Shown here: positions 1 to 13,863 of the stretch, in pieces
Position numbering within the stretch: the stretch's first letter is position 1
Layout of the letters: the number at the start of each line of letters is the position of its first letter
Assembly (NCBI RefSeq): GCF_014191605.1
Contig: NZ_JACHWU010000009.1
Location: 1 to 64,000, forward strand
Direction: 5' to 3'
Source of the DNA: Prauserella isguenensis
Lineage (GTDB): Bacteria; Actinomycetota; Actinomycetes; Mycobacteriales; Pseudonocardiaceae
DNA: 64,000 bases
Program-made: the position numbers and the translations under genes
The notes under the pieces: model-generated
The model's database searches: none
What the model was told of the DNA's origin: nothing
The model's input: the letters and a program-made list of their open reading frames with translations, nothing else

Positions 1-49
1 TCTCCGGATAGATGTTGATCTTCTTGGTCGTTGATCCATCTACCGGAGA
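1..49 (-). terminator. Inverted repeat downstream of the Hyf-like operon
   Basis: The left arm TCTCCGGATAGATG (1-14) pairs with CATCTACCGGAGA (37-49), with one bulged base. The loop holds a direct repeat GTTGATC at 14-20 and 30-36. It lies about 60 bases beyond the stop of the last operon gene and could end that transcript. No T-run can be seen because the window begins here, so it may equally be part of an unrelated repeat. Positions 50-108 show nothing else. Confidence 0.35.
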
Positions 50-108
50 CCTCCCCACATCCCCACACCAGGGCCCGTTCTTAAACAGCTCCTAGGCCGC
101 GGTTGTGA

Positions 109-1638
109 CTAAAGGTCGTTGCCGGCGTAGGAGAGGTTGAAGCTCTTATTCGTCGGCGGGAAGTCCGGCACGATCGTGTCGGTCAGTGCGACGGGCAAGG
201 CGGGCCAGTTGAGGAAGCTGGGGTCGACGACCTTGACCCGGCGCAGGGTGCCGTCGGAGGCGAGTTCCACGCGGTGCACGATCGTGCCGCGCCAGCCTTC
301 GACGATGCCGACGCCGGAGCCAGCGGCATGGGGGCCGGCATCCGAGGTGTCGCCCGGAGAGGTCGTCCGGCCGTCGAGAACCTTGACCAGACGTGTGATC
401 AGCTCGATGGAGTGGGCGATCTCCTCAGTGCGGACAGTGAAGCGGGCCAGGACATCGCCCTGAGTGTGGCTGTGGGAGGCACGCTCCCCGGGTTCAGGAA
501 GAGTGGGATGGTCGTGCCGGGCGTCGACGGCAAGTCCGCTGGCGCGGGCCACGTAGCCCAGCGTACCGAGGTCGGTGGCCTGCTCATGAGTCAAGACCGC
601 GGTCCCCGAGAAGCGGTCCCGCACCACGCTATGGCCCAGCGCGAGGCTGGCCAGCTCGGCAATGTCCTCGCCGATGGAAGCCAGCGTATCGGTGTCGGGC
701 AGGTGCCGGACAGCGGTGCCGCCGAGGTGGATGCCGCCACGCAGGAGCCGGTGACCGGCGACGTGATCGTTGATGCGGAGCAGTTGTTCGCGGATGCGGC
801 CAGCGTGGGCGTTGAGAATGCTGTGTCCCGCGTCGTTACACAAGGCGCCGAGGTCGGTGACGTGGTTGTAGAGGCGCTCCAGTTCCAGCAGGATCGCGCG
901 GAGCTGCTGGGCTTGTACCGGGACTGACAGCGACCGGGCGTCTTCGATGGCCTGGCAGAACGCGAGCGTGTGCCCGACAGCCGTGTCGCCGCTGACGCGT
1001 TCGGCGAGTTCGAATGCTTCCTCGGGGCGGCGTCCTTGGAACAGCTTTTCCAGTCCTTTATGGACGAACCAGAGGCGGGCTTTGAGGTTGAGGATGGTTT
1101 CGCCGACGACCGAGAAGCGGAAGTGGCCGGGTTCGATCATCCCGGCGTGTACTGGCCCCACGGGAATCTCGTAGACGCCGGGGCCTTCGACGGTGCGAAA
1201 GGGGTAAGGACCGTCGACGTCGCCGAACTCTGGTGGCTCCCCGGCGTCGTGCAGCATCGGGTACCAGCCTTGGGGCCAGTGGAAGTGCCGGACCAGTCGG
1301 CGTGGCAGCGGGTGGTCGTCGGGCACGATGCCGAACAGATCGCGCATTTCGCGTTCGAAGCGGCCGGCGGAGAAGGACAACCTTGCCACGCTCGGCAGGT
1401 GCGGATGGTCGCGGTCGAGTGGCACGTGCAGTTCGATGCGACGATCGGTGCCCGCCTGCGTGAACAGGTAGACGGCGCGCAGCGCGTCGCCGTCGTCGTG
1501 CCCGGCGATCAGAGCGATCCGGAATCCGGCATCCAGCAGCTCCCCCACCTGTCCGGGGACCGCGTCGGGGCTGATCGTGAGCGCGGTGCGGCGGTAGCCG
1601 ACCGATTCGCCGTGAGCGTGGTGTTCGGGTGTGGTCAT
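109..1638 (-). CDS. hyfG: Hydrogenase-4 component G-like / NuoC-NuoD fusion subunit lacking NiFe ligands
   Basis: This 509-aa protein is the peripheral large subunit of a complex-I-like membrane complex. The NuoC-like (30 kDa) part occupies about residues 20-125, with the EREMRDLFGI signature near 95-104. The NuoD-like (49 kDa) part follows from about 165. Where NiFe hydrogenases have RVCGIC this protein has RVSGDT (214-219), and the C-terminal DPCxxC is DPSFLN (near 472). All four NiFe-binding cysteines are therefore absent, so a hydrogenase reaction is unlikely. The start MTTPEHH was chosen because it overlaps the hyfF stop by four bases (ATGA). The upstream open frame is arginine-rich shadow. 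The equivalent in M. tuberculosis is Rv0087 (annotated HycE). The electron donor is unknown. Confidence 0.9.
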   Translation of the reverse strand: MTTPEHHAHGESVGYRRTALTISPDAVPGQVGELLDAGFRIALIAGHDDGDALRAVYLFTQAGTDRRIELHVPLDRDHPHLPSVARLSFSAGRFEREMRDLFGIVPDDHPLPRRLVRHFHWPQGWYPMLHDAGEPPEFGDVDGPYPFRTVEGPGVYEIPVGPVHAGMIEPGHFRFSVVGETILNLKARLWFVHKGLEKLFQGRRPEEAFELAERVSGDTAVGHTLAFCQAIEDARSLSVPVQAQQLRAILLELERLYNHVTDLGALCNDAGHSILNAHAGRIREQLLRINDHVAGHRLLRGGIHLGGTAVRHLPDTDTLASIGEDIAELASLALGHSVVRDRFSGTAVLTHEQATDLGTLGYVARASGLAVDARHDHPTLPEPGERASHSHTQGDVLARFTVRTEEIAHSIELITRLVKVLDGRTTSPGDTSDAGPHAAGSGVGIVEGWRGTIVHRVELASDGTLRRVKVVDPSFLNWPALPVALTDTIVPDFPPTNKSFNLSYAGNDL

Positions 1639-3116
1639 GGTGTTCCCGCGAGGAGATCGGCGGCCAGGGACAGCAACGGGTGCAACGGGCCGGTGGTGAC
1701 CCCGATCGCGGCGCAGGCCAGGAGGCCGACGACCAGTGCGGCACCGGCGATGACGTTCATTCGGGGCGACGCGGTGGCCGCACCCGGCCCATCGGGCGCG
1801 GCCCCGAGCACCATGCGGCTGGTATGGGTTACCAAGGCGGCGGCGATCACGAGGACGAGGACGAGCGCAGCGGCCATCGCCCAGCCGAGTCCTGCGGTGA
1901 ATCCTGCTCGGGCGATGCCAAGCTCGCTGGCGAACAGGCTGAACGGTGGCAACCCGATGAGGGCGAGGACACCGAGCCCGAAACATCCGGCCAGGACCGG
2001 CTGTCGGGCGGCCAGGCCCCGAACCTGGTCGATGCGGCTGGTGCCGGTGATCTGCAGGATGTGTCCGGACCCGAGGAACAGCACGCTCTTGGCCAGCCCG
2101 TGGCCGAGGATGTGCAGCAAGACCGCAGCGATCGCGAGTCGTCCGCCGACCGCGGCCCCCAAGGCCAGCAGGCCCATGTGCTCGATGCTGGAGTAGGCCA
2201 ACATCCGCTTGTAATCACGTTGGGCCAGCAGCAGTGACGCCGAGAGTGCCAGCGAAGCCAGGGCGATCACCACCAGGAGCGTCCGGGCGAAGCCGGTTCC
2301 CAGTGCGGCGTCGGCGATCACTTTCACCCGCAGAATTGCGTAGAAGGCCACGGAGAGCAGCACCCCGGACATCAACGCCGACACGGGCGCCGGTGCTTGG
2401 CTGTGCGCATCGGGCAGCCACGCATGCAAGGGCGCCAGGCCCGCTTTGGTCCCGAACCCGACGATCAGCAGCACGACGGCGATGCGAGTGACGCCCGGGT
2501 CGAGGGTGTGGGCACTGGCAGCCAACTCCGCCCAGTTCAGACCCGCACCGGGAGCAGTGTGCTGCGAGGCGTAGTTGAGCAGGAACGTGCCCAGCAGCGC
2601 CAACGCGATGCCCGCTGAGCAGATCACCACGTACTTCCACGCCGCCTCCACCGCGGGACGAGTTCGCCGCTGTCCCACCAGAAACGCGGTCACGATGGTG
2701 GTGGCCTCGACCGCGACCCACAGCATCCCCAGGTTCGCGGCCAACACCGCGAGTGCCATCGCCGCCAGGAACAACTGGACCAGCAGGCAGTGCCGAGCGG
2801 CGGTGCGCGAACTGGCCCGCCCGGCGATGATCTCGGTACGCAGGTGGTCTGGTGTCGCTGCCGTGGCCAAGAAAGCGATGGCTCCGATCACGACAAGCAT
2901 GAACGCGCTCAGCGCATCAACCCGCAGCAACCCTGCCAAGACGGTGTGAGGATCGTCGTTGACGACCGCGGCGGAGGTGGCGATCGCGGTGGCGAGCACG
3001 AGCGCCGCGCTTGCGGCGCTGACCCAGGCGGTGGCGCGGCGCCATCCCGCCAGCGCGTAGATCACGGCTCCGAGCGCGGGGACGACGACGGGGGCAAGGA
3101 GGAGAAGGTGAGTCAT
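1635..3116 (-). CDS. hyfF: Hydrogenase-4 component F-like antiporter subunit (NuoL/M/N family)
   Basis: A 493-aa polytopic membrane protein of the proton-antiporter family (Proton_antipo_M). The family core is visible as WVAVEATTIVTAFLVGQ near residues 125-140 and the lysine/histidine-bearing helices KAGLAPLHAWLPDAHSQAP and RMLAYSSIEHMG. It should form part of the proton- or ion-translocating arm. The ATG start shares one base with the hyfE stop (TGATG), and its own stop overlaps hyfG by four bases, so translation is coupled. The order and type match Rv0086 (HycQ) of M. tuberculosis. Confidence 0.9.
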   Translation of the reverse strand: MTHLLLLAPVVVPALGAVIYALAGWRRATAWVSAASAALVLATAIATSAAVVNDDPHTVLAGLLRVDALSAFMLVVIGAIAFLATAATPDHLRTEIIAGRASSRTAARHCLLVQLFLAAMALAVLAANLGMLWVAVEATTIVTAFLVGQRRTRPAVEAAWKYVVICSAGIALALLGTFLLNYASQHTAPGAGLNWAELAASAHTLDPGVTRIAVVLLIVGFGTKAGLAPLHAWLPDAHSQAPAPVSALMSGVLLSVAFYAILRVKVIADAALGTGFARTLLVVIALASLALSASLLLAQRDYKRMLAYSSIEHMGLLALGAAVGGRLAIAAVLLHILGHGLAKSVLFLGSGHILQITGTSRIDQVRGLAARQPVLAGCFGLGVLALIGLPPFSLFASELGIARAGFTAGLGWAMAAALVLVLVIAAALVTHTSRMVLGAAPDGPGAATASPRMNVIAGAALVVGLLACAAIGVTTGPLHPLLSLAADLLAGTP

Positions 3117-3778
3117 CAGTCGTGCAGCTCCCGCAGTTCGTCCAGGTCGGTATCGCCGAACGTGGCCCGCATGCGCGTGGTCAGAATTTGCAGGACCAGG
3201 ACGGCCAGCAGCACGTCCAGGGACACCCCCAGCTCCACGACGAGTCCGACTCCGGAGGTGGTGAGGAATCCGACTGCGGTGATGCCGTTGTCCATCAGCA
3301 GGAAGCCGACCAACTGGGATAGGGCGCGCCGTCGAGTGACCAGCACGAAGAACCCGATCAATACGACGGTCATGCCCACGGCGACGGCCTGCGTCGCCGG
3401 TGACGGAGCCAAGGCGACCAACGGTTGGGACACCGCATACCCCAGCAGCGTCAGCACCGCTGCAGCGAGCAGGGACGAGGCGACGTTGACCAGTGGCCGG
3501 GTCTCCCGGCGCTCTTCGCCAGCCGCCGCCAGCGCGCGTCGCAGCAACGCGGGAAGCACCCCAGCACGCAGCACTAGGATTCCGACTGCGACGGCCCCCA
3601 ACTCGATCGAGCCTTCGTGCGCAGCCAGGACCGCGACGAGAGCGGCCAGTGCCAGTCCTTGCAGCGCGAACACGCGGATGATGACGGCCAGTTCCCGGCG
3701 CCACAGCACGAGTACAGCAGTGAGCAGCAGGACGCCGCAGGCCAAGTCCAACAGTTGGACGTAGAGGTCGTGACTCAT
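3116..3778 (-). CDS. hyfE: Hydrogenase-4 component E-like membrane subunit
   Basis: A 220-aa, almost wholly hydrophobic protein with about six predicted membrane segments, ending in a charged tail (TDLDELRELHD). It resembles the HyfE family, in which the N-terminal part is related to NuoK. It is the third subunit of the membrane arm here and corresponds to Rv0085 (HycP). It starts 48 bases after the hyfC stop, the only real gap inside the operon, and its stop codon overlaps the hyfF ATG. Confidence 0.85.
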   Translation of the reverse strand: MSHDLYVQLLDLACGVLLLTAVLVLWRRELAVIIRVFALQGLALAALVAVLAAHEGSIELGAVAVGILVLRAGVLPALLRRALAAAGEERRETRPLVNVASSLLAAAVLTLLGYAVSQPLVALAPSPATQAVAVGMTVVLIGFFVLVTRRRALSQLVGFLLMDNGITAVGFLTTSGVGLVVELGVSLDVLLAVLVLQILTTRMRATFGDTDLDELRELHD

Positions 3779-3826
3779 CGCGATCTCAGATGCTCGGTCG
3801 TCATGGTGGTTCCCATCGAAGATTCG

Positions 3827-4783
3827 TCAGTGGGGCTGTGCCAGGAAGAAGGAGGCGGTGACGGCCAGCAACGACAGCAGGAATGATCCGGCCAGCAGCT
3901 CGGGCACCCGGAACAGACGCAACTTGGCCAGGAACACCTCCCCCGCAGAGAGCAGGACCCCGAGCAGCACCACCTTGATCACGAAGGCCGCGACTCCCGC
4001 GAGCAGGGCGACGGGCGTGGCGGCGGTCGCGATGCCCCACGGAACGAACAGGTTCGCCAGCAACCCGAGAAATGCCGTCAGTCGCATCGCCGAGGCCCAT
4101 TCGACCAGGCCCAGGTCCCGGCCTGCGTACTCCAGGATCATTGCCTCGTGCACCATCGTCAGTTCCAGGTGCGTGGAGGGGTTGTCCACCGGCAGCCGCC
4201 CTGTCTCGGCAATGATCACCACGACCAGGGCCACCGCGGCCAAAAGGCTGACCGGGGAGATCACCCGGGCCGGGTCCTGCAAGGTCGAGGTCACGATCGC
4301 GCCCAGATTGGTCGACCCGACTCGCACCGACAACGCGAAGATCGACACCAGCAGTGTCGGCTCGACGAGCGCGATGATGGTCATCTCGCGGCTGGCGCCC
4401 ATGCCGCCGAACGCGGTGCCGGTGTCCAACCCGGCCAACGCCAGCGCGACGGTGCCCAGCGCCAGCAGGGCGACCACCGCGAACAGGTCTGCGACCGAAT
4501 CCACGGCGGATGCGGTCGTCACGAACGGGGCCACGATCGCGACGACCACGGTCGTGGCCACTAGCACCAACGGCGCGATCCGGAACACCTCGCTGGTGCC
4601 GCGTGGCGTGATGGACTCCTTGCGCAGCAGCTTGCGCAAGTCCCGCCACGGTTGACCGATTCCCGCCCCGGCACGGCCTTCCAGCCGTGCCCGCACCTGG
4701 CGCATCACCCCTACCAAGAAGGGTGATCCTGCGACGACGAGCACGAACTGCAGGACCCCGCCGATCACGCCCAACGCGTTCAT
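3827..4783 (-). CDS. hyfC: Hydrogenase-4 component C-like / NuoH-type membrane anchor
   Basis: A 318-aa NADHdh-family (NuoH/HycD) protein that joins the peripheral and membrane arms in complex-I relatives. The cytoplasmic loop RAGAGIGQPWRDLRKLLRKE (about 38-57) and the later VDNPSTHLELTMVHEAMILEYAGRD are family hallmarks. The latter carries the conserved acidic residues of the quinone-tunnel loop. The start MNALGVIGG was chosen because it overlaps the hyfB stop by four bases. It corresponds to Rv0084 (HycD). Confidence 0.9.
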   Translation of the reverse strand: MNALGVIGGVLQFVLVVAGSPFLVGVMRQVRARLEGRAGAGIGQPWRDLRKLLRKESITPRGTSEVFRIAPLVLVATTVVVAIVAPFVTTASAVDSVADLFAVVALLALGTVALALAGLDTGTAFGGMGASREMTIIALVEPTLLVSIFALSVRVGSTNLGAIVTSTLQDPARVISPVSLLAAVALVVVIIAETGRLPVDNPSTHLELTMVHEAMILEYAGRDLGLVEWASAMRLTAFLGLLANLFVPWGIATAATPVALLAGVAAFVIKVVLLGVLLSAGEVFLAKLRLFRVPELLAGSFLLSLLAVTASFFLAQPH

Positions 4784-6798
4784 CGGATCACCACCAGCAG
4801 GATCAACAAGCCGCACACGGTGTAGAAGCCGTAGCCGAGGTAGCGGTGCACACTGCCGGTGGCCAGCCGGCGGGCAACACTCCCCCAGGCAGTGATCAAT
4901 CGCAGAACAGGCTCGTAGAGGCGGCGTTCGAGGCGATCGGGCACGCGCTGGCGGTATTCCACGGCTTGCACGAGGTAGCTCGACTCCTGATGGTGGGTCA
5001 CGTCGATGTCCTGTTCTGGCTGCACCACGTCGTCGAAGACCCGTTGCAGCGGTTCGGCGAAGGACGTCGCCGTGTACTCCATGCGGGGCGACAGTGGTCC
5101 CGCACCGCAGTCCCACAGTCGGGCGGTGCGCCGGGCTCGGCGTGCCGCGATCAGGCGCACCGCTCCGACAAGGACGACGCTGACCACTAGAAGGGCGACG
5201 GTCAGCAGCAAGGGCGAGAGCGCTCCCGCGACCCCGTTCAACTGCAGCGTGACCTGCCCGCTCACAGCGGGCTGCGCAGTCCCCAGGGTCATGGTGCTCG
5301 CGGAGCCGACCGCGGGCAGGACCACGCTGGGCACCAGGGCCAATGTGACGCAGGCCACTGCCGCAAGCCCCATCCCGGCCAGCATGCTGACCGGGCTTTC
5401 GGTGGCATTCGCGGCAGCGCTGCTGCGTGGCCGAGCCAAAAACCCGACTCCGAACGCCTTGACGAAGGTGGCCACGGCCAACCCGGCGGTTAGTGCCACG
5501 GCCGCCACGGCCACCGGCATCACGATCGCGGTCGCCGCGCCCGAGGCGGGCAGCCCGTGGATCAGGGCCTGCAACAGCAGCCACTCGCTGACGAACGCGG
5601 TTCCTGGCGGCAATGCCGAGGCTGCCAGCGCTCCGAGCCCGAAGCCCCACGTGGTGACTGGCATACCTGCCCGAAGCCCACCCAACGCGTCGAGATCACG
5701 GCTGCCGGTCGCGTGCAGCACCGAGCCGGCAGAGAGGAACAACAAGGTCTTGAACGCGGCATGATTGATCACGTGCAGCAGCGCCGCAGACAACGCCACC
5801 CCCGCCAGCACATCGTCGCCCGCGGAGGCGAAAAGCCCGGCCGCTCCGACTCCGACCAGCACAAGTCCCATGTTCTCGGTCGTCGAATTGCCCAAAAGCC
5901 GCTTCAGGTCGCTGCTCATTGCGGCCTGCAAGATCCCGTAGACCGCAGACAGTGCGCCCAGCACGAGCACCAGCAGCCACCACCATCTGGGGCCGCCGCC
6001 CAGCAGGTCGAAACCGACCCTGGCGATGCCATAGATACCGAGGTTGACCATCGCTGCCGACATCAGCGCCGACACATGACTCGGGGCCTCGGGATGCGCC
6101 CGCGGCAACCAGGCGTGCAGCGGCAAGATCCCGGCCTTGGATGTGAACCCCACCAGAGTCAACACGAACACGACGTTGGCCACGACCGGCGACAGATTCG
6201 TTGCAGCGGCCCGCAAAGCTGGGAACGAGTCATCGGCGGAATGCGCCACCAGCACGAGCAACCCGATCAGGATCGCCACCATGCCCAGATGGGTCATCAC
6301 CGCGTACCAGCGCCCGGCGACCGCCACGGTGTCGCGCTGCTGATGCTCGGCGAGCACCAGTACCAGCGAGGTCAGCGCCATCAGTTCCCAGCACACTAGG
6401 AACGTGCCCACGCTGGCCGCCGCCGGAACCAGCAGCATGGCCAGCACGAACAGCGGCAACACCGCTTGGACGCCCCGGCCGTCGAGTCCGTGGCGGGCAT
6501 AACCGATGCCATACACCGCGACCGCGATCGCGACACCCCCGGTCACAACCAGGAATAACCCGCTCAGCGCGTCTACCGCAAACGACACACCAAACAACGG
6601 CAACAGCGCGGGGATCTCCACCGAGTACGCCTGTCCGGCCACAGCAACAGCCCCTGCCAGCACGCCAAATGCCCCAACGAGCACCGTCCCGACTCCGACA
6701 GGGACGAGACGAAGTCGTCGCGGAGTGATCAGGGCGAGCAACGCGCTCAGCACACCGACGGCCACGGCCGCACCGAGGCCCGCATGGACGAGGTTCAT
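4780..6798 (-). CDS. hyfB: Hydrogenase-4 component B-like large antiporter subunit
   Basis: A 672-aa member of the NuoL/MrpA antiporter family with roughly 14-16 membrane helices. The core helices are visible in WELMALTSLVLVLAEHQ, SKAGILPLHAWLPRAHPEAP and RLLGNSTTENMG. A C-terminal extension beyond residue 550 ends in a hydrophobic helix (YGFYTVCGLLILLVVIR). The start MNLVHAGLG overlaps the preceding NuoB-like stop by four bases. It corresponds to Rv0083. Together with HyfF it gives two ion-channel subunits. Confidence 0.9.
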   Translation of the reverse strand: MNLVHAGLGAAVAVGVLSALLALITPRRLRLVPVGVGTVLVGAFGVLAGAVAVAGQAYSVEIPALLPLFGVSFAVDALSGLFLVVTGGVAIAVAVYGIGYARHGLDGRGVQAVLPLFVLAMLLVPAAASVGTFLVCWELMALTSLVLVLAEHQQRDTVAVAGRWYAVMTHLGMVAILIGLLVLVAHSADDSFPALRAAATNLSPVVANVVFVLTLVGFTSKAGILPLHAWLPRAHPEAPSHVSALMSAAMVNLGIYGIARVGFDLLGGGPRWWWLLVLVLGALSAVYGILQAAMSSDLKRLLGNSTTENMGLVLVGVGAAGLFASAGDDVLAGVALSAALLHVINHAAFKTLLFLSAGSVLHATGSRDLDALGGLRAGMPVTTWGFGLGALAASALPPGTAFVSEWLLLQALIHGLPASGAATAIVMPVAVAAVALTAGLAVATFVKAFGVGFLARPRSSAAANATESPVSMLAGMGLAAVACVTLALVPSVVLPAVGSASTMTLGTAQPAVSGQVTLQLNGVAGALSPLLLTVALLVVSVVLVGAVRLIAARRARRTARLWDCGAGPLSPRMEYTATSFAEPLQRVFDDVVQPEQDIDVTHHQESSYLVQAVEYRQRVPDRLERRLYEPVLRLITAWGSVARRLATGSVHRYLGYGFYTVCGLLILLVVIR

Positions 6799-7277
6799 CG
6801 ACCAGTCAACTTCCGCAAGCCCTCGACGATCTCCTCCGGGCGAGGCGGACAACCCGCGATCTCCACGTCCACAGGCACCACGTCCCGCACGGCACCCGTG
6901 ACCCCGTACGCCTCGGCGAACACTCCGCAGTTCCGGGCGCAGTCGCCGACGGCCACAACGAACTTCGGCTCCGGCAGCGCCTCGTAGGTCCGCCGCAGTG
7001 GCTCGGCCATGTTCCGAGTCACCGGGCCGGTCACTAGCAGCGCGTCCGCATGACGAGGCGAGGCCACCAGCCGAGCACCATAGCGTTCGGCGTCATACAC
7101 CGGCCCGAACGCAGACCCAATCTCGACCTCGCAGCCGTTGCACGACCCGGCATCCACATGCCGGATCTGCACCGAACCACCCAACTCCGCCGCAACCGAA
7201 AGCTCCTCGCTCGGCTGCGACGGTGCAGGCTCGGCGACCCGACCCGTCCTGCGGATCTTGCGCCACAAACTCAACAC
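6795..7277 (-). CDS. NuoB/HyfI-like small iron-sulfur subunit
   Basis: A 160-aa protein of the NADH-quinone oxidoreductase 20 kDa (NuoB) family. Cysteines at 46 and 49 (GSCNGC), 113 (GDC) and 143 (AGCPPRPEEI) match the ligands of the proximal [4Fe-4S] cluster (N2-type). Cys117 is extra. This is the only iron-sulfur protein in the operon: no HyfA, HyfH or NuoI-type ferredoxin is encoded. It is the first structural gene after the regulator, and it corresponds to Rv0082. In the complex it would pass electrons to the quinone or active site at the HyfG interface. Confidence 0.88.
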   Translation of the reverse strand: MLSLWRKIRRTGRVAEPAPSQPSEELSVAAELGGSVQIRHVDAGSCNGCEVEIGSAFGPVYDAERYGARLVASPRHADALLVTGPVTRNMAEPLRRTYEALPEPKFVVAVGDCARNCGVFAEAYGVTGAVRDVVPVDVEIAGCPPRPEEIVEGLRKLTGR

Positions 7278-7307
7278 ACTGTGCTCCCAATTCCTCTTCG
7301 GAGGGGA

Positions 7308-7355
7308 GCGGTCACCCTGCCGATCGGCAGGACCCCGGTACGGCAGGGTGACCGC
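7308..7355. promoter_or_regulatory. Perfect 15-bp inverted repeat between arsR-type gene and NuoB-like gene
   Basis: The arm GCGGTCACCCTGCCG (7308-7322) is repeated in inverse at 7341-7355 with an 18-base spacer. Inside it, CTGCCGATCGGCAG (7317-7330) is a perfect 14-bp palindrome, so two mutually exclusive hairpins are possible. It occupies most of the 81-base gap between the regulator stop and the first structural gene. It could be a transcription attenuator, an mRNA-processing hairpin or a second regulator-binding site. Confidence 0.6.
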
Positions 7356-7358
7356 AGC

Positions 7359-7703
7359 TCACGCGCTCGCGGACGCGCCAGGATTGCGTAGGTCGTCCAG
7401 CAGCTCGGCCTGCCCGGACAGCACCTTGGTCAGGATTGTCCGCGCCACCGCCAACAGTTCCGCCACATGCGGACTCGTCAATGAGTAGTAGACGGCGGAG
7501 CCTTCCTTGCGCGTGGTGACAAGCCCGGCCCGGCGCAACACCGCCAACTGCTGCGAGAGGTTTGCCGACTCGATCCCGACCTCCGGGAGCATTTCGGAGA
7601 CGGCATGCTCACGCTCACTCAGCAGCTCCAGCACCCGAATCCGCGCAGGATGTCCCAGCGTCTTAAAGAACTCAGCCTTCAGCTGATACAGCGGCGTGCT
7701 CAT
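7359..7703 (-). CDS. ArsR-family regulator, Rv0081-like
   Basis: A 114-aa winged-helix repressor. The HTH region is LGHPARIRVLELL through NLSQQLAVLRRAGLV (about 14-62), followed by the wing (TTRKEGSAVYYSL). It contains no cysteine, so the classical CVC metal site of ArsR/SmtB sensors is absent. Length and sequence closely resemble my recollection of M. tuberculosis Rv0081, a hypoxia-network regulator at the head of the same gene order. The start MSTPLYQ was chosen for the GGAGGG sequence seven bases upstream; the longer open frame lacks such a site. It probably autoregulates through the inverted repeat at 7842-7861. Confidence 0.88.
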   Translation of the reverse strand: MSTPLYQLKAEFFKTLGHPARIRVLELLSEREHAVSEMLPEVGIESANLSQQLAVLRRAGLVTTRKEGSAVYYSLTSPHVAELLAVARTILTKVLSGQAELLDDLRNPGASASA

Positions 7704-8280
7704 CCAGCTCCCTCCACGGAACCCTCGATGCGTGTCCACCACCAGCGTGCACACGCCAGGCCCCGGCCTGCGCCTGCCCGACGAAGTCGAGTCCTACGCA
7801 TCGATCCCTCCGCGCCGCTCAGCCGAACACAAGAAGTCAGCAATTGCAAACCTTAGCAATTATTTACTCCGGGAAGGCACGCGGGGACAGACGTCATACA
7901 CCGCAACAAGACTGCACGAAGCCAGTCCGACAGCAGGCGGATGGAGCGGATAGATCGCCATCCCTGCCCACCACGCCTCGGTTCGAGGCAAGCACGCGAG
8001 CTGGCTTTAAGTTAAGAGAGCGGGAGCAAGCGGCGCGGCGATCCAGCACTGCCATCCGCCCGCGCCCGCTCGGTGACCTCGGCTCGCGCCGGGAGCTACG
8101 AGGCGAAACCCGAGGGGCAGGCAGCTATGACGGAGCGGCGCGACTGGCATCAGCGCTGACGTGCCCGGGGGGCATCTCCGGAGATACGATGGATTTCACC
8201 AAGACGCTGACTGTCGGCTTGCTACGAGCAATCGAGTCCGCCACGGATGACGTCCACTAGAAGATCCGCTGGGCGCCGAT
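7704..8280. other. 577-base gene-poor stretch upstream of the ArsR regulator
   Basis: The left part holds the regulator's promoter and operator. Apart from that I see only a possible 23-codon reading frame at 8189-8260 (ATG preceded by GGAG), which could be a leader peptide but has no supporting homology. Base composition is lower in GC than in the rest of the window around 7800-7900 and 8000-8030. No RNA gene or transposon end was recognised. Confidence 0.4.
7842..7861. promoter_or_regulatory. Candidate ArsR-type operator
   Basis: AATTGC (7842-7847) and GCAATT (7856-7861) form a perfect inverted repeat with an 8-base spacer, in a locally AT-rich patch about 140 bases upstream of the regulator start. 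The minus strand reads GAGTAAATAATTGC here, a plausible -10 region. The position and symmetry suit an ArsR dimer. Confidence 0.5.
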
Positions 8281-8703: not shown

Positions 8704-10819
8704 ATGACCACAGCACATGAGCCGCAGGTCTCCGAGGCGCAGATCTCCGTCCATTGGCGTGAGGAGGAGTACTACCAGCCGCCGGCGAGGTTCATTGGCC
8801 AGGCGAATGCGGCCGATCCGGCTATTTTTCGAACGCTTTAGCGAACAGTACTTTCCCGACTGCTTCAAGGAGTACGCGGAACTGCTCACCTGGGACTCCT
8901 ACTGGCACACCATCCTCGATTCCAGTAACCCACCGTTTTGGAAGTGGTTCGTCGGGGGTCGGCTCAACGCCTGCTACAACTGCGTCGACCGGCACCTGGC
9001 CACGCGACACAACGAGGCAGCCCTGATCTGGGTACCCGAGCCTGAAGGCGAGACCACGCAGGCGATCACCTATCAGGAGCTATACCAGCAGGTCAACGAG
9101 TTCGCCGCCGTGCTGCGCGAGTTCTGCGGCGTCGAGACCGGCGACCGGGTGACCTTCCACCTACCGATGGTTCCGCAACTGCCCGTTGCCATGCTCGCCT
9201 GCGCCAGGCTGGGCGCCATCCATTCCGAGGTGTTCGGCGGGTTCAGCGGTGCGGCGTGTGGGGACCGAGCCGCTGACGCGACCAGCCACGTCCTGGTGAC
9301 GATGGACGGTTACTACCGGAACGGTCAGCTGGTCGATCACAAGGCCAAGGCCGACGAGGCTGTCGCGACCGCCCACGAGCGCGGCCACGAGATCGACAAA
9401 GTGCTCGTGTGGCGGCGGCACCCCGGTAGCTACGGGTCGCAGAGTCCGATGGTCGAGGGCCGGGACTTCTTCGTCGACGAGTTGCTCGCCGAGCAGCGCG
9501 GGAAGGTGGTCGATCCCGTGTCGATGCCCGCGGAAGCCCCGCTGTTCCTGATGTACACCAGCGGCACGACGGCACGGCCCAAGGGCTGCCAGCATTCGAC
9601 CGGCGGGTATCTCGCCTACGTGGCGGGCACCTCGAAGTACTACCAGGACATCCATCCCGACGACACGTACTGGTGCTGCGCGGACATCGGGTGGATCACC
9701 GGGCACTCCTACATCGTCTACGGGCCGCTGGCACTGGGCACCACGAGCGTGATGTACGAGGGCGCACCGGCCTATCCGGATCCTGGCCGGGTCTGGCGAA
9801 TCGCCGAACGGCTCGGGGTGAGCATCTTCCACACCGCGCCGACGACGATCCGGATGCTGCGCAAGCTCGGCCCGGACGAGCCGGGCAAGTACCACTACCG
9901 CTTCAAGCACATGACGACGGTGGGCGAGCCGATCGAGCCGGAGGTGTGGCGTTGGTACTACGAGACCGCCGGCAAGCGCGAAGCAGCCATCGTCGACACC
10001 TGGTGGCAGACCGAGAACGGGGGATTCCTCGGCAGCACCTTGCCTGCCCTGCAGCCGATGAAACCCGGTAGCTGCGGTCCCGGCGTACTGGGTATCTACC
10101 CGGTGATCTACGACGAGGACGGCAACACCGTCGAGGCCGGGAGCGGTCAGGCGGGAAACATCTGCATCCGCAACCCCTGGCCCGGGATCTTCCAGACCAT
10201 TTGGGGCCAGCCGGAGCGGTTCGTCGAGACCTACTACCAGAAGTACTGCCGCGACCCCGAGAGCAAGGACTGGCACGACTGGCCGTACTTCGCCGGTGAC
10301 GGCGCCGTGCAGGCCGCCGATGGTTATTTCCGGATCCTCGGCCGGGTCGATGACGTGATCAACGTGGCTGGCCACCGGCTCGGCACCAAGGAGTTGGAAT
10401 CGGCCAGCCTCACCGTCGAGGAGATCGCCGAAGCCGCCGCGGTCCCGGTTGTCGACGAGCTCCGTGGGCGGGCCGTCGAGATGTATGTGTCCCTGAAACC
10501 GGGGTTGAAGCCCAGCAAGGACATCGAGGACAGGGTCGCCCAGGCGATCGACCGCGAGATCGGCAAGATCGCGCGACCAAAGAACGTCTGGGTCGTCACC
10601 GACATGCCCAAGACCCGCTCCGGGAAAATCATGCGACGCGTCATCGCAAGCATCTCCAACTTCGGCGACGTCGGGGATGTCTCGACACTGGCGAACCCGG
10701 AGATCGTTGACGACATCCGCCACCACATCCAGAGCGACAAACTGGCCCACGGCGATGTCCCCCGCCAGCTCACACCACAGGAAGCCGAGGAGATCCAATC
10801 GTTCGGCCGGGTCGAATAG
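8704..10819 (+). CDS. acs: Acetyl-CoA synthetase (AMP-forming) with apparent +1 frameshift near the N-terminus
   Basis: The enzyme converts acetate, ATP and CoA to acetyl-CoA. The true start is ATG 8704, preceded by GGGAGG (8691-8696). That frame encodes a typical N-terminus (MTTAHEPQVSEAQISVHW...) but stops at TAG 8839-8841. The rest of the protein (ERFSEQYFPDCF onward, to 10819) is in the next frame. The shift maps to the T5 run at 8825-8829, where four T would restore ADPAIFERFSEQ. Downstream features are intact: YTSGTTARPKG (AMP-binding P-loop), WWQTENGG, GRVDDVINVAGHRLG and PKTRSGKIMRR, which carries the lysine acetylated in Acs. An ATG at 8717 opens the downstream frame but gives an arginine-rich nonsense N-terminus. 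Whether this is a real mutation or a sequencing error cannot be decided here. Confidence 0.85.
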
Positions 10820-11847: not shown

Positions 11848-13863
11848 ATGACCAGCGCATACGCTGACTCCAACGACGAGTTGCAGCAGGATATCGCTGT
11901 TCCTGTCGAGCACCCTGCGGATGGCGTGGAACCAGGGACGCGTGCGGTGATCTACCTGCGCGTGTCCTCCACCGGGCAGGTCAAGACCGACTACGACCCC
12001 GAGGGCATCTCCATCCCGGCCCAGCGGGAGGCGTGCCTGCGCAAGGCCAAGGACTTGGGCCTGACCGTCATCGATGAGTACGTCGAGCCCGGCCGCTCGG
12101 CGACGGAGATGACCAAACGGGAAGCATTCCAACGGATGCTGGCCCGTGTGCGCGGCCAAGGCGATGTCGACTACGTCATCGTCTACATGCTCTCCCGCAT
12201 GGCACGGAACCGCTACGACGACGCCATCGTCATGGCCGACCTCCGCAAACGCGGCGTCACGCTCGTCTCCGCCACCGAGGCAGTCGATGACTCGCCTGTC
12301 GGACAGCTCATGCACGGCATCCTGGCCACCTTCAACGAGTACCAGTCCCGCCAGTCCGGCGCCGACATCGCCAACAAGATGGGTCAAAAGGCGCGCACTG
12401 GCGGGACTCTCGGCCGCGCCAAGATCGGGTATCTCAACCACATCGACCACTCCGACGGCCGGGTGATCCGCACCATCGTCCTCGACGACGAACGGGCACC
12501 TTTCGTACAGCTCGCTTTCGAGCTGTACGACACCGGGGACTACACGCTCGATGAGCTGGCCGACGAACTCTACGACCGCGGCCTCCGCACGCGACCCACC
12601 GCCAAGCACCCGGCGAAGAAGGTCTCGATCAACAAGCTCTCGCAGATGCTGCGGGACCGCTACTACATCGGCTACGTGACCTACAAAGGCGAGGAGGTCC
12701 GAGGCCGACACGAGCCGTTGATCGACGAAGACCTCTTCGACCGGGTTCAGGACCGGATCAACTCCCGATCCGCGGCCAAGGAGCGGCGCCGGCTGCACCA
12801 CCACTACCTCAAGGGCTCACTGTTCTGCGGGCGCTGCCGACGAGCAGGGGTGACCCAACGGATGATCATCCAGCGCACCATCAACTCCAAGGGGGCCGAG
12901 TACCTGTACTTCTTCTGCCGCAACCGGCAGAACAGCACCTGCGACGCCCCGCACGTCAACGCCGAACTCGTCGAGGACGCCATCGAACGGCACTACGCCA
13001 CGATCCGCTTCAGCCAGGCGTTCATCAGCGACGTGCGAGCCCAGATCGACACCGTCATCAGTGAACAGGAAAAGTCCGCACGGCTGCTGCACCAGCAGCT
13101 CTCCACCCAGCTCGCCGAACTCGACACCCAGGAGGAGAACGTGATCGACCTGGCAGCCGACGGCACCCTGCCGCAAACCAAGGTCAAAGCCAAGCTCCGC
13201 GACATCGAACGCCAGCGACGGCACCTCACCGGGCGCCTGGCCACCGCCTCCGCCGACCTCACCGATGCCGCCCGACTGATCGACGTGAGCCTGAAGCTGC
13301 TCGAACGCCCCGAGGACCTGTACCGGCGGTGCAACGACGAGCAGCGGCGCCTACTCAACCAGGCGATCTTCCACAACATCTACATCGAGGACGAGGAGGT
13401 CACCGACCACGACCTCCAGGAACCCTTCAATCAGCTCCACGCCATCCAGCAGACGCAACGGTCAACGCACGCACAGCACACCATGCCCGCCATTCCGGAG
13501 CCCCGAGACAGCAAAAAGGCCACCCGCCAAGCGGGTGGCCCATCCACGCCTTCCGGCGTTGAGGTACTACTCCAGGGCCTTCAATCAGGCACGTGTTCTA
13601 GTAGTACCTCTAAGGTGGAGCTAAGGGGATTCGAACCCCTGACCTTCTCACTGCCAGTGAGACGCGCTACCAACTGCGCCATAGCCCCGTATGTCTGTTC
13701 GCGGCTCTCACCGCTGCCTGTGCGAAATAATGTACCCCATCGCCCGCAGGCACCCGCACAGGGGGTCCGCCTCGCGCAGCCGACGCGGCCGGACCCGCCG
13801 CCGACCGGCGTCGCACGGCCTCGTCATGCCTCAGTCAGAGCTCGTCGCGCAGGTGGGCGCTGA
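11848..13863 (+). CDS. Large serine recombinase / integrase
   Basis: The protein catalyses site-specific recombination through a serine-DNA intermediate. The resolvase domain spans about residues 31-180: YLRVSSTGQ carries the nucleophile at about Ser40, and MLSRMARNRYD and GQLMHGILATFNEYQSRQSG follow. The recombinase domain follows (LGRAKIGYLN to IDEDLFDRVQDRI). Next is a zinc ribbon (LFCGRCRR and FFCRNRQNSTC), then a coiled-coil region at about 395-470. The recognisable protein ends near residue 545 (EPFNQLHAIQQ). The remaining frame crosses a terminator hairpin and the antisense tRNA-Ala, producing the RGFEPLTF peptide seen when tRNAs are translated backwards. The natural stop therefore seems to have been lost at the integration site. 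Confidence 0.85.
   Translation: MTSAYADSNDELQQDIAVPVEHPADGVEPGTRAVIYLRVSSTGQVKTDYDPEGISIPAQREACLRKAKDLGLTVIDEYVEPGRSATEMTKREAFQRMLARVRGQGDVDYVIVYMLSRMARNRYDDAIVMADLRKRGVTLVSATEAVDDSPVGQLMHGILATFNEYQSRQSGADIANKMGQKARTGGTLGRAKIGYLNHIDHSDGRVIRTIVLDDERAPFVQLAFELYDTGDYTLDELADELYDRGLRTRPTAKHPAKKVSINKLSQMLRDRYYIGYVTYKGEEVRGRHEPLIDEDLFDRVQDRINSRSAAKERRRLHHHYLKGSLFCGRCRRAGVTQRMIIQRTINSKGAEYLYFFCRNRQNSTCDAPHVNAELVEDAIERHYATIRFSQAFISDVRAQIDTVISEQEKSARLLHQQLSTQLAELDTQEENVIDLAADGTLPQTKVKAKLRDIERQRRHLTGRLATASADLTDAARLIDVSLKLLERPEDLYRRCNDEQRRLLNQAIFHNIYIEDEEVTDHDLQEPFNQLHAIQQTQRSTHAQHTMPAIPEPRDSKKATRQAGGPSTPSGVEVLLQGLQSGTCSSSTSKVELRGFEPLTFSLPVRRATNCAIAPYVCSRLSPLPVRNNVPHRPQAPAQGVRLAQPTRPDPPPTGVARPRHASVRARRAGGR
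13513..13540 (-). terminator. Intrinsic terminator of tRNA-Ala
   Basis: On the minus strand GGCCACCCGC and its complement (arms 13531-13540 and 13518-13527, loop 13528-13530) form a 10-bp GC-rich stem followed by TTTTT (plus-strand A-run 13513-13517). It lies about 75 bases downstream of the tRNA, as expected for its terminator, and inside the over-long integrase frame. Confidence 0.8.
13561..13610. other. 50-bp att-like inverted repeat beside the integrase
   Basis: GAGGTACTACT (13561-13571) and AGTAGTACCTC (13600-13610) are perfect 11-bp inverted arms of a site exactly 50 bp long, centred on the dinucleotide at 13585-13586. Serine integrase attP sites are typically about 50 bp with such symmetry and lie next to the integrase gene. 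It could instead be an RNA hairpin, but the 28-base loop and absence of a T-run make that less likely. Confidence 0.5.
13616..13688 (-). tRNA. tRNA-Ala (GGC anticodon)
   Basis: The minus strand gives a full cloverleaf of 73 nt: acceptor GGGGCTA/TAGCTCC with one G-U pair, a D-arm, and anticodon stem TCTCA/TGAGA around the loop CTGGCAG (anticodon GGC). The T-arm contains GGTTCGAATCC, and the discriminator is A73. The 3' CCA is not encoded. A terminator follows at 13540-13513, and an AT-rich -10-like patch lies about 40 bases upstream (AATAATGTA on the plus strand at 13726-13734). Confidence 0.95.

What the first reader, a model, noticed from the sequence alone, without database searches (positions are those of the whole stretch)
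109..7703. Complex-I-like Hyf module without NiFe ligands or ferredoxin subunit, under an Rv0081-like regulator
Seen: HyfG has RVSGDT and DPSFLN where hydrogenases carry the four NiFe cysteines. The operon encodes one iron-sulfur protein (NuoB-like) and two antiporter subunits. It has no NuoEFG, NuoI, HyfA/HyfH or maturation genes. Known: the gene order regulator-NuoB-HyfB-C-E-F-G is that of M. tuberculosis Rv0081-Rv0087, a hypoxia-responsive locus. Inference: this is a respiratory or ion-pumping complex with an unidentified electron donor, perhaps a soluble partner or a reaction other than H2 chemistry.
Basis: partly seen in the sequence, partly recalled or inferred. Interest (0 to 1): 0.75.

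Follow-up and report, generated by a model that had tools for sequence, protein, structure and literature searches.

The report
Hydrogenase-like ion pump without hydrogenase site
This actinobacterium carries a membrane ion-pump complex built from hydrogenase parts that has lost the metal site for hydrogen, and in many relatives it sits beside a carbon-fixing enzyme and a dead malic-enzyme relative under the same type of switch, so its usual label of formate hydrogenlyase is very probably wrong.

Summary
The operon is real (7 genes, minus strand, 109-7703) and belongs to a conserved actinobacterial family with an Rv0081-like regulator. HyfG lacks all four NiFe cysteines. One of the two cited motifs was misplaced: DPSFLN is an ordinary motif; the true site reads KSFNLSYAGND. 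The replacement residues are kept in 44-45 of 45 named relatives, as are cluster cysteines and proton-channel residues. HypD is absent from the genome. So this is very likely a working, H2-independent, energy-converting-hydrogenase-related (Ehr) complex with one 4Fe-4S cluster.

The proposed partner-gene search succeeded. Rv0081-like regulators also head units with a small protein, a dead malic-enzyme relative (MEL) and often GTP-PEP carboxykinase, many directly behind hyfG. In 150 family genomes MEL and hyfG co-occur in 13 (7 hyfG-only, 4 MEL-only); outside the family the link is weaker but recurs in two families. In this genome that tail lies on another contig, across an IS5 element (inferred join). 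Electron donor, acceptor and mechanism remain inferred.

Sister complexes, several under fluoride riboswitches, keep a ferredoxin-type cluster but have lost the NiFe site and the inner cluster. Verdict: new variant of a known kind.

The parts
1..96 (.). end of an IS5-family-type insertion element at the contig edge (CTAG at 92-95), directly behind hyfG
   Evidence: the same sequence starts contig C3 (98%); matches the right end of an IS5-family element of Pseudonocardia alni plasmid pPaSha1, whose left end matches the end of contig C6
109..1638 (-). hyfG: large subunit (NuoC-like + NuoD/hydrogenase-like domains), no NiFe ligands
   Evidence: Pfam Complex1_49kDa 1.7e-24, Complex1_30kDa 3.8e-16, NiFeSe_Hases 1.3e-11; PDB HycE 7z0s_E 4.4e-52
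982..993 (-). SGDT at the place of hydrogenase CGIC (residues 217-220, counted from window base 1641)
   Evidence: alignment to HycE; S, G, D in 45 of 45 and T in 44 of 45 named relatives
115..147 (-). KSFNLSYAGND at the place of the hydrogenase C-terminal CxxC (residues 499-509)
   Evidence: every residue in 44 of the 44 named relatives whose sequence reaches this far, one of 45 being cut short
1635..3116 (-). hyfF: antiporter-like subunit
   Evidence: Pfam Proton_antipo_M 2.3e-53; NCBIfam hydrogenase 4 subunit F 5e-113, below its cut-off; Glu134, Lys221, Lys340 in 45 of 45
3116..3778 (-). hyfE: small membrane subunit
   Evidence: NCBIfam hydrogenase 4 membrane subunit 1.1e-24, below its cut-off; no Pfam match
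3827..4783 (-). hyfC: NuoH/HycD-like membrane subunit
   Evidence: Pfam NADHdh 5.7e-41; PDB HycD 7z0s_D 2.6e-41
4780..6798 (-). hyfB: antiporter-like subunit
   Evidence: Pfam Proton_antipo_M 5.7e-45; PDB HycC 7z0s_C 2.8e-56; Glu141 in 44 and Lys224, Lys302, Lys353, Glu408 in 45 of 45
6795..7277 (-). hyfI/NuoB-like small subunit, the only iron-sulfur protein; Cys 46, 49, 113, 117, 143
   Evidence: Pfam Oxidored_q6 5.4e-33; PDB MbhJ 4.2e-38, HycG 4.2e-35; all five Cys in 43 of 43 named relatives whose locus holds the gene; Cys117 is Arg in the more distant L158
7359..7703 (-). R: ArsR-family regulator of Rv0081 type
   Evidence: Pfam HTH_5 3.7e-10; PDB 6jmi (Rv0081) 4.4e-39, 136 bits, next 53 bits
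7844..7859 (-). palindromic operator-like site TTGCTAAGGTTTGCAA, about 140 bases in front of R
   Evidence: derived from R upstream regions of related loci; only exact match of TTGCTAANNTTNGCAA in the genome; 0.06 matches expected in the window at up to 2 mismatches

Best explanation
The operon encodes an Ehr complex of the Rv0082-Rv0087 type: a membrane arm (HyfB, C, E, F) that moves H+ (or Na+), and a small soluble head (HyfI, HyfG) with a single 4Fe-4S cluster and a rebuilt, metal-free pocket in place of the NiFe site. R represses it; when R lets go (low oxygen or a related redox or metabolite signal, by analogy with Rv0081) the complex is made. In many lineages a GTP-PEP carboxykinase and a dead malic-enzyme relative (MEL, perhaps a C4-acid sensor or scaffold) come under the same type of regulator. 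Likely working: during oxygen shortage a soluble low-potential carrier such as ferredoxin docks on HyfI, passes electrons to its one cluster and on to an acceptor in the rebuilt pocket, and this drives ion pumping, while PEPCK and MEL adjust the PEP/oxaloacetate/malate node towards CO2 fixation and reductive C4 acids. Shown: loss of NiFe ligands, kept cluster Cys, kept pump residues, conserved new pocket, no HypD, linkage to MEL and PEPCK. Inferred: repression and oxygen response, electron donor and acceptor, ion moved, roles of MEL and PEPCK.
For: NiFe ligands absent and the replacements kept in 44-45 of 45 named relatives. HypD absent. Small-subunit Cys kept in 43 of 43, although sister complexes show that the fold survives without them, so the cluster is probably kept for use. 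Channel Glu/Lys of HyfB/HyfF and the acidic stretches of HyfC conserved. Regulator Rv0081-like with an operator-like palindrome. MEL: 13 of 20 hyfG+ against 4 of 130 other genomes in the family sample. Of 45 named loci 16 have MEL and 12 have PEPCK near hyfG. In all 4 genomes of that sample with MEL but no hyfG an Rv0081-like R (80-89% to the window's) lies within about 2.5 kb of MEL. Outside the family R, MEL and PEPCK lie by hyf in G509, R-MEL just before hyf in G399, PEPCK divergent from R-hyf in G281. In M. tuberculosis PEPCK and malic enzyme are reported up in low oxygen and tied to a reductive TCA branch (PMC3188519, passages; PMC5335906, passages).
Against: No electron donor or acceptor is identified; no ferredoxin gene stood out near the locus (not searched by profile). 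Known energy-converting relatives feed the inner cluster through a ferredoxin-like subunit (recalled), which is missing here. The nearest relatives of this hyfG (G120, Saccharopolyspora dendranthemae) have no MEL or PEPCK match beside it, and none of the 18 loci from Actinomadura, Nonomuraea and Mycobacterium among the 45 has one (one of the 18 is cut inside hyfG), so these partners are not obligatory. In the class sample MEL is rare: 11 of 394 genomes, 7 of them without hyfG, and 27 of 31 hyfG genomes lack it; without this genome the overlap is 3 of 30 against 7 of 363 (p 0.03, relatedness not corrected). Mutants of pckA and mez in M. tuberculosis showed no anaerobic survival defect (PMC3188519, passages). 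Six other genomes of the same genus lack hyfG. No DosR-type box above chance in the window. The join to contig C6 is inferred.
Confidence: 0.45

Rival explanations
1. Redox-decoupled, gated ion antiporter: the head no longer does redox catalysis; ligand binding in the Ser/Asp/Thr/Ser pocket or the oxidation state of the lone cluster opens or closes an Mrp-like H+/cation exchanger that holds pH and membrane potential during low oxygen.
For: No electron-input subunit. Sister complexes have lost the NiFe site and, in 9 of 10 small subunits of that gene order, all inner-cluster Cys, yet keep most pump residues; five of the nine sit behind fluoride riboswitches, where pH and ion homeostasis genes gather (PMC11139923, passages).
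Against: The window family keeps its HyfI Cys in 43 of 43 named relatives, which a pure antiporter would not need; the sister complexes still carry a distal ferredoxin-like cluster motif, and one of them (L189) keeps the inner Cys.
Confidence: 0.3
2. CO2/bicarbonate or carboxylate machine: the rebuilt polar pocket binds bicarbonate, formate or a C4 acid, and ion flow through the membrane arm drives uptake or conversion that supplies PEPCK with CO2.
For: PEPCK and a malic-enzyme relative as neighbours; a beta-carbonic anhydrase directly before a MEL in this genome (contig C6), before R-MEL in L121 and behind hyfG on the other strand in L059.
Against: Carbonic anhydrase in only 3 of 98 searched sources (62, 20 and 16); CO2-uptake subunits of CupA or DabA kind were not searched for; nothing shows substrate binding.
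Confidence: 0.12
3. Hybrid complex: HyfI/HyfG dock on the electron-input part (NuoEFG/NuoI) of the genome's own NDH-1 or a similar soluble dehydrogenase.
For: A normal NDH-1 set is encoded on contig C1, so input modules exist in the cell.
Against: Not linked; no sequence evidence for shared docking was looked for or seen.
Confidence: 0.07
4. Formate hydrogenlyase or [NiFe] hydrogenase, as the tuberculosis homologues are annotated.
For: Homology to HycE/HycG/HycD/HycC and annotation of the homologous locus (PMC6901956, passages).
Against: All four NiFe ligands gone in the 45 named relatives as far as their sequences reach; HypD absent from the genome; ferredoxin subunits absent; formate-dehydrogenase candidates all score below the family cut-off, the top one resembling a nitrate reductase.
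Confidence: 0.02
5. Decaying relic without function.
For: Patchy distribution, IS5-type element directly behind hyfG, broken copies in relatives (L084, L091, L092).
Against: Seven intact frames and near-perfect conservation of specific residues across several Actinomycetes families.
Confidence: 0.04

Closest known systems
M. tuberculosis Rv0081-Rv0087 locus (annotated hycD/P/Q/E, predicted formate hydrogenlyase)
   Same: Rv0081-type ArsR regulator in front of the gene order that the finding names; three Mycobacterium relatives carry the same SGDT and NKSFNLSYAGND residues (L061, L062, L078)
   Different: the tuberculosis proteins themselves, other than Rv0081 in the PDB search, were not compared here; no MEL or PEPCK match beside the three Mycobacterium loci
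Ehr complexes (energy-converting hydrogenase-related)
   Same: group-4 hydrogenase-like subunits without NiFe ligands; papers say so for other phyla (PMC6349859, PMC10284858, PMC7304191, passages)
   Different: here no ferredoxin-type input subunit, one cluster only, ArsR regulator, and a PEPCK/malic-enzyme-like partner module
E. coli formate hydrogenlyase (PDB 7z0s) and hydrogenase 4 (Hyf)
   Same: HycC, D, E, G homologous; HyfE/HyfF-like genes
   Different: no NiFe Cys, no separate iron-sulfur subunits beyond HyfI, hyfG ends at the former metal motif, no HypD
Respiratory complex I (NDH-1)
   Same: homologous B, C, D, H and L/M/N-type subunits
   Different: no NuoE/F/G/I in the operon; the residues aligned with the quinone-site His38 and Tyr87 of Nqo4 (roles recalled) are Ile169 and Gly218
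Fluoride-riboswitch-linked 'formate hydrogenlyase' complexes of actinobacteria (L087, L089, L090, L186, L190)
   Same: HyfB/C/E/F/G/I-like subunits, NiFe site lost
   Different: gene order C-E-F-G-I-B, HyfI fused to a single-cluster ferredoxin domain, inner-cluster Cys lost, fluoride riboswitch in front

Membership tests
[NiFe] group 4 hydrogenase / formate hydrogenlyase | two CxxC motifs binding NiFe in the large subunit | tested here: not met
   SGDT and NKSFNLSYAGND instead; no Cys at these places in 45 (first site) and 44 (second site) named relatives
[NiFe] group 4 hydrogenase / formate hydrogenlyase | NiFe maturation machinery in the genome (HypD) | tested here: not met
   no match to PF01924 in a genome given as 100% complete
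[NiFe] group 4 hydrogenase / formate hydrogenlyase | formate dehydrogenase partner | tested here: inconclusive
   12 matches to TIGR01591, all below cut-off; the best resembles an assimilatory nitrate reductase, the second is closest to Fdh-alpha but below its cut-off; none is near the operon
[NiFe] group 4 hydrogenase / formate hydrogenlyase | H2 evolution or uptake | not testable with these tools
   needs an assay
Ehr complex | group-4 hydrogenase-like large and small subunits without NiFe ligands | tested here: met
Ehr complex | antiporter-like (Mrp/Nuo L-M-N) membrane subunits with conserved channel residues | tested here: met
   HyfB, HyfF; conserved Glu and Lys
Ehr complex | placement in the published Ehr clade | not tested
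   no reference Ehr sequences were placed in a tree here
Rv0081-Rv0087-type locus | Rv0081-type regulator in front of NuoB/HyfI-B-C-E-F-G | tested here: met
   regulator closest to 6JMI; gene order; the tuberculosis genome itself was not fetched
Complex I | NADH input module and chain of iron-sulfur clusters | tested here: not met
   absent from the operon; the genome's NDH-1 is a separate locus
Malic enzyme (the neighbour MEL) | catalytic Lys, metal-binding Glu/Asp and GxGxxG of the NAD domain (roles recalled) | tested here: not met
   in the profile alignment to 2a9f LFKAF faces LIEEL, INLED faces VYLTR, HDDQHGT faces TE-EDTT, NGGGSAG faces AGADTLP; fold kept (pLDDT 89, Foldseek E 7e-13 to malic enzyme 5cee)

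The most novel reading that the evidence does not exclude
Actinobacteria have turned a group-4 hydrogenase at least twice into a complex that no longer does hydrogenase chemistry: one form (here) keeps only the inner cluster and works with PEP carboxykinase and a dead malic enzyme under an Rv0081-type regulator; the other (several under fluoride riboswitches) keeps only an outer cluster. The membrane arm would then be driven or gated by something other than a complete electron chain, for example a carboxylate bound in the rebuilt pocket, which would make these complex I relatives whose ion pumping does not rest on an electron wire.
Probability: 0.25. Interest if true: 0.88.

Novelty: new variant of a known kind. 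Interest (0 to 1): 0.6.

Why it matters
The homologous locus in tuberculosis bacteria is described as a formate hydrogenlyase or [NiFe]-hydrogenase in the passages read. The relatives examined here, three Mycobacterium loci among them, lack the NiFe ligands. Linking the complex to PEPCK and a malic-enzyme pseudoenzyme gives a concrete, testable metabolic context: oxygen-limited CO2 fixation at the PEP-oxaloacetate node. The sister complexes also suggest why 'formate hydrogenlyase' turns up among fluoride-riboswitch genes: those read here look like ion-transport machines without a hydrogenase site. Both bear on an open question, namely how much of the redox arm a complex I relative needs in order to move ions.

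Tried and rejected
Fluoride link for the window operon: no Rfam match but one tRNA in window 1-30000. DosR box (pattern recalled): 3 matches at up to 2 mismatches against 6.4 expected. Wider R regulon by operator search: only the site before R is exact; the other places have 2 mismatches and are no commoner than the control pattern. Quinone site: the Nqo4 His38 and Tyr87 positions (roles recalled) hold Ile and Gly. A clade of hyf-linked PEPCKs: the tree of 20 is mostly open and does not set the linked copy of this genome apart from the unlinked one. Reading the sister complexes as wholly cofactor-free was withdrawn once the fused ferredoxin domain was seen. Literature: 9 of 10 searches used. 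Judged by their listings, searches returned no paper that ties Rv0081-type loci to a PEPCK/MEL module; the papers listed were not read for it except in the passages named. Read as passages only: PMC6901956, PMC6349859, PMC10284858, PMC3188519, PMC2799521, PMC6985099, PMC13332983, PMC11139923, PMC5037454, PMC7304191, PMC5335906; no paper was read whole. The primary paper on the tuberculosis locus (PMC3187382) is not held and was not seen.


Full report
What is there. The window is the start of contig C9 of a 4.95-Mb genome held as 15 contigs, given as 100% complete. Its family f1 is Pseudonocardiaceae by inference: G genomes of f1 share coordinates with named loci, for example G131 and Actinocrispum wychmicini. 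On the minus strand lie an ArsR regulator (7359-7703), a NuoB/HyfI-like protein (6795-7277), HyfB (4780-6798), HyfC (3827-4783), HyfE (3116-3778), HyfF (1635-3116) and HyfG (109-1638); starts of HyfB, C, F and G are those of the gene caller, and the Pfam and NCBIfam scans used starts up to 9 bases away. The best NCBIfam matches stay below the curated cut-offs except two subfamily models (NuoB for HyfI, HTH_metalloreg for R). Residue numbers for HyfG count from base 1641, one codon before the likely ATG.

The hydrogenase site. Against E. coli HycE (PDB 7z0s_E, 4.4e-52), HycE's RVCGICG faces RVSGDTA. HycE's SLDPCY faces SFNLSY (500-505), where the printed alignment ends; by extension HycE's C-terminal CxxC corresponds to the last residues of the window protein. 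In the 45 named loci S217, G218 and D219 are kept in 45 of 45, T220 in 44, and residues 499-509 in all 44 whose sequence reaches that far; no Cys stands at any of these places. A larger set of 60 rows, some loci perhaps held twice, says the same. The genome has no HypD (4 of 14 control genomes rang). This is very unlikely to be an H2-metabolising enzyme.

What is kept. HyfI has Cys 46, 49, 113, 117 and 143 in 43 of 43 named loci that hold it (in the more distant L158 Cys117 is Arg), so one 4Fe-4S cluster is likely. HyfB and HyfF keep the Glu and Lys of antiporter-like subunits in 44-45 of 45 and HyfC its acidic stretches; that these are the proton-path residues is recalled. There is no ferredoxin-like subunit. 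The quinone-site His38 and Tyr87 of Nqo4 (roles recalled) face Ile169 and Gly218.

Distribution. In the family sample 26 of 150 genomes match HyfG at 1e-30. Twenty hold the window type at 67% identity or more (one of them, G022, only a fragment), five hold only a 31-34% sister type, and one (G137) holds only a 130-residue fragment and was counted as negative. The six other genomes of the same genus in the sample have none, and the operon has lower GC (67.5%) than the window beyond 13900 (70.8%), so horizontal arrival is likely. In the class sample 36 of 394 match, 31 of them at 57% identity or more over the matched stretch. G148, G154 and G538 hold both types.

Partner genes. Neighbourhood comparison of 45 named loci shows a recurrent tail behind hyfG, mostly on the same strand: a small unknown protein (S83), sometimes a second ArsR (R2), a roughly 270-residue protein here called MEL, and a GTP-dependent PEP carboxykinase (NCBIfam 3.5e-294 for L038, above cut-off). 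Near hyfG, 16 of 45 have MEL and 12 of 45 PEPCK (L054 in the opposite orientation); several loci end at contig edges. None of the 18 loci of Actinomadura (12), Nonomuraea (3) and Mycobacterium (3) has either. Across the 150 family genomes MEL is found in 17: 13 of the 20 hyfG genomes and 4 of the other 130 (Fisher p 8e-11; relatedness not corrected). In the hyfG tree the MEL-near label, with the window counted as near by inference, needs 9 changes, at least 5 forced by well-supported branches, against 19.0 on average in 500 shuffles, none as low (quick method, long branches flagged). In the 4 family genomes with MEL but no hyfG, an R with 80-89% identity to the window's lies within about 2.5 kb of MEL; G100 also has a divergent PEPCK (39%; NCBIfam 599 bits, above cut-off) beside it. 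In G109 hyf and R-S83-MEL are two separate units, each with its own R; a second MEL of G019 (L131) has no R in view.

Outside the family. MEL is found in 11 of 394 class genomes, this one included, and hyfG in 4 of those 11. Without this genome the overlap is 3 of 30 hyfG genomes against 7 of 363 others (p 0.03), so co-occurrence alone is weak there. All 12 MEL loci from the other 10 genomes were fetched: 8 have an R hit (52-76%) next to MEL, 4 have none. G509 (family f2) has PNPOx-I-B-C-E-F-G-R-MEL with R, PEPCK and MEL beyond it; G399 (f20) has R-MEL just before hyf; G281 (f20), fetched for its hyfG, has PEPCK divergent from R-hyf. So the same type of regulator heads two kinds of unit, which is the best functional link found.

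MEL. Its profile finds malic enzymes in the PDB (2a9f, 8.6e-14), and its AlphaFold model (mean pLDDT 89.4) matches malic enzymes best (5cee, E 7.1e-13, TM 0.77 by query length, rmsd 4.7). The match starts at residue 62 of 2a9f, so the N-terminal part is missing, and the catalytic Lys, the metal ligands and the GxGxxG (roles recalled) are replaced. It is a pseudoenzyme by sequence; that it senses or scaffolds is a guess.

This genome. Contig C9 begins with an insertion-element end behind hyfG. Contig C6 ends with S83, R2, MEL and PEPCK (151864-153672, 75% identity to the PEPCK of L038), oriented as expected, then the other end of such an element. An IS5-family element of a Pseudonocardia alni plasmid carries both ends in that order and orientation (C6 end 85.7% over 56 bases, C9 end 92.3% over 39 bases, each with a short terminal match); a second element read, from Streptomyces aurantiacus, matches the C6 end equally but the C9 end only over about 22 bases. 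I take the true order as R-I-B-C-E-F-G-[IS5]-S83-R2-MEL-PEPCK. This rests on synteny and matching element ends: contig C3 shares the C9 end, and the two nearest hyfG relatives lack the tail. Further along C6 lie a second MEL and, directly before it on the same strand, a beta-carbonic anhydrase (Pfam 5.8e-33), which is found in only 3 of 98 searched sources, this one included. A second, unlinked PEPCK lies on C1.

Regulation. R is closest to Rv0081. Its upstream regions in many relatives share the palindrome TTGCTAAnnTTnGCAA, present at 7844-7859 as the only exact site in the genome. Rv0081 is described as a hypoxia hub and as regulating the homologous genes (PMC6901956 and PMC5335906, passages). 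PEPCK and malic enzyme are reported up in low oxygen in tuberculosis bacteria and tied to a reductive TCA branch, although single mutants showed no survival defect (PMC3188519, passages). Whether this strain responds to oxygen was not tested.

Sister complexes, which bear on mechanism. At 30-34% HyfG identity there is a second actinobacterial type, order C-E-F-G-I-B. Of 13 small subunits aligned (L087-L090, L186, L188, L190, L191, L196) have all inner-cluster Cys replaced (for example SDGSEE, GTDAISGG, GSPP); four keep them, of which L189 has the same gene order and L187, L192, L193 another. In the eight of the nine read at full length a fused N-terminal domain carries one ferredoxin-type Cys set (Pfam for L089). 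Five of the nine have a fluoride riboswitch directly before the first gene (L087, L089, L090, L186, L190); in three of the other four (L188, L191, L196) the stretch read begins inside the operon, and L088 showed none. In L089 the neighbours include CrcB twice, DUF190, enolase and a MutS-like protein. A review lists formate hydrogenlyase among the commonest fluoride-riboswitch genes (PMC11139923, passages); those read here lack the hydrogenase site. Since the fold tolerates loss of the inner cluster, its strict retention in the window type argues that the cluster is used there.

Judgement. Identity as a non-hydrogenase Ehr complex: about 0.95. Ion-translocating: about 0.85. Functional link to the PEPCK/MEL module in the lineages that have it: about 0.75. 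Electron-driven rather than gated: slightly favoured. Papers already describe Ehr complexes without NiFe ligands in other phyla and HydDB excludes Ehr from hydrogenases, so the kind is known; the single-cluster layout, the conserved pocket and the partner module make this a new variant.

Noticed in passing
L087-L090, L186, L188, L190, L191, L196 (related loci): Sister Hyf-like complexes, 5 of these 9 with a fluoride riboswitch in front, with NiFe site and inner-cluster Cys lost but a fused single-cluster ferredoxin domain; in L089 beside a CrcB pair, DUF190, enolase and a MutS-like gene. L189, same gene order, keeps the inner Cys.
   Followed up: partly
L095 (contig C6 142000-155917): Beta-carbonic anhydrase directly before a second MEL gene, converging on S83-R2-MEL-PEPCK; a DUF2637 protein nearby.
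   Followed up: partly
11848-13863 and 13614-13688: Large serine recombinase whose open frame overlaps a tRNA-Ala (GGC) gene on the other strand, about 4 kb from the operon start: possibly the edge of an integrative element; no exact second copy of the tRNA 3' end was found in the loci held.
   Followed up: partly
8717-10819: Acetyl-CoA-synthetase-like AMP-binding enzyme (Pfam ACAS_N, AMP-binding), divergent from R, behind an unknown 125-aa frame; it clustered with no gene of the 45 named loci.
   Followed up: no
L194, L195: Distant HyfG-like proteins (32-35%, L195 in two pieces) with no other Hyf match in the 16 kb read, divergent from an Rv0081-like regulator (77% to the window's) amid universal-stress-protein matches.
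   Followed up: no
L192, L193: HyfG of about 40% identity in 2-Mb genomes with RISGDS or RICGDS and NKSFNL(T/S)Y: the same rebuilt site, in one case with a single Cys, perhaps an intermediate.
   Followed up: no
L084, L091, L092: Broken hyfG remnants in relatives; L092 keeps S83-R2-MEL-PEPCK beside the remnant.
   Followed up: no
L040, L038, L042, L049, L080 and other related loci: CBS-BON proteins near R or hyf; PNPOx-like proteins (both by Pfam), and by eye PRPP synthase and universal stress proteins near others, a dormancy-type neighbourhood.
   Followed up: no
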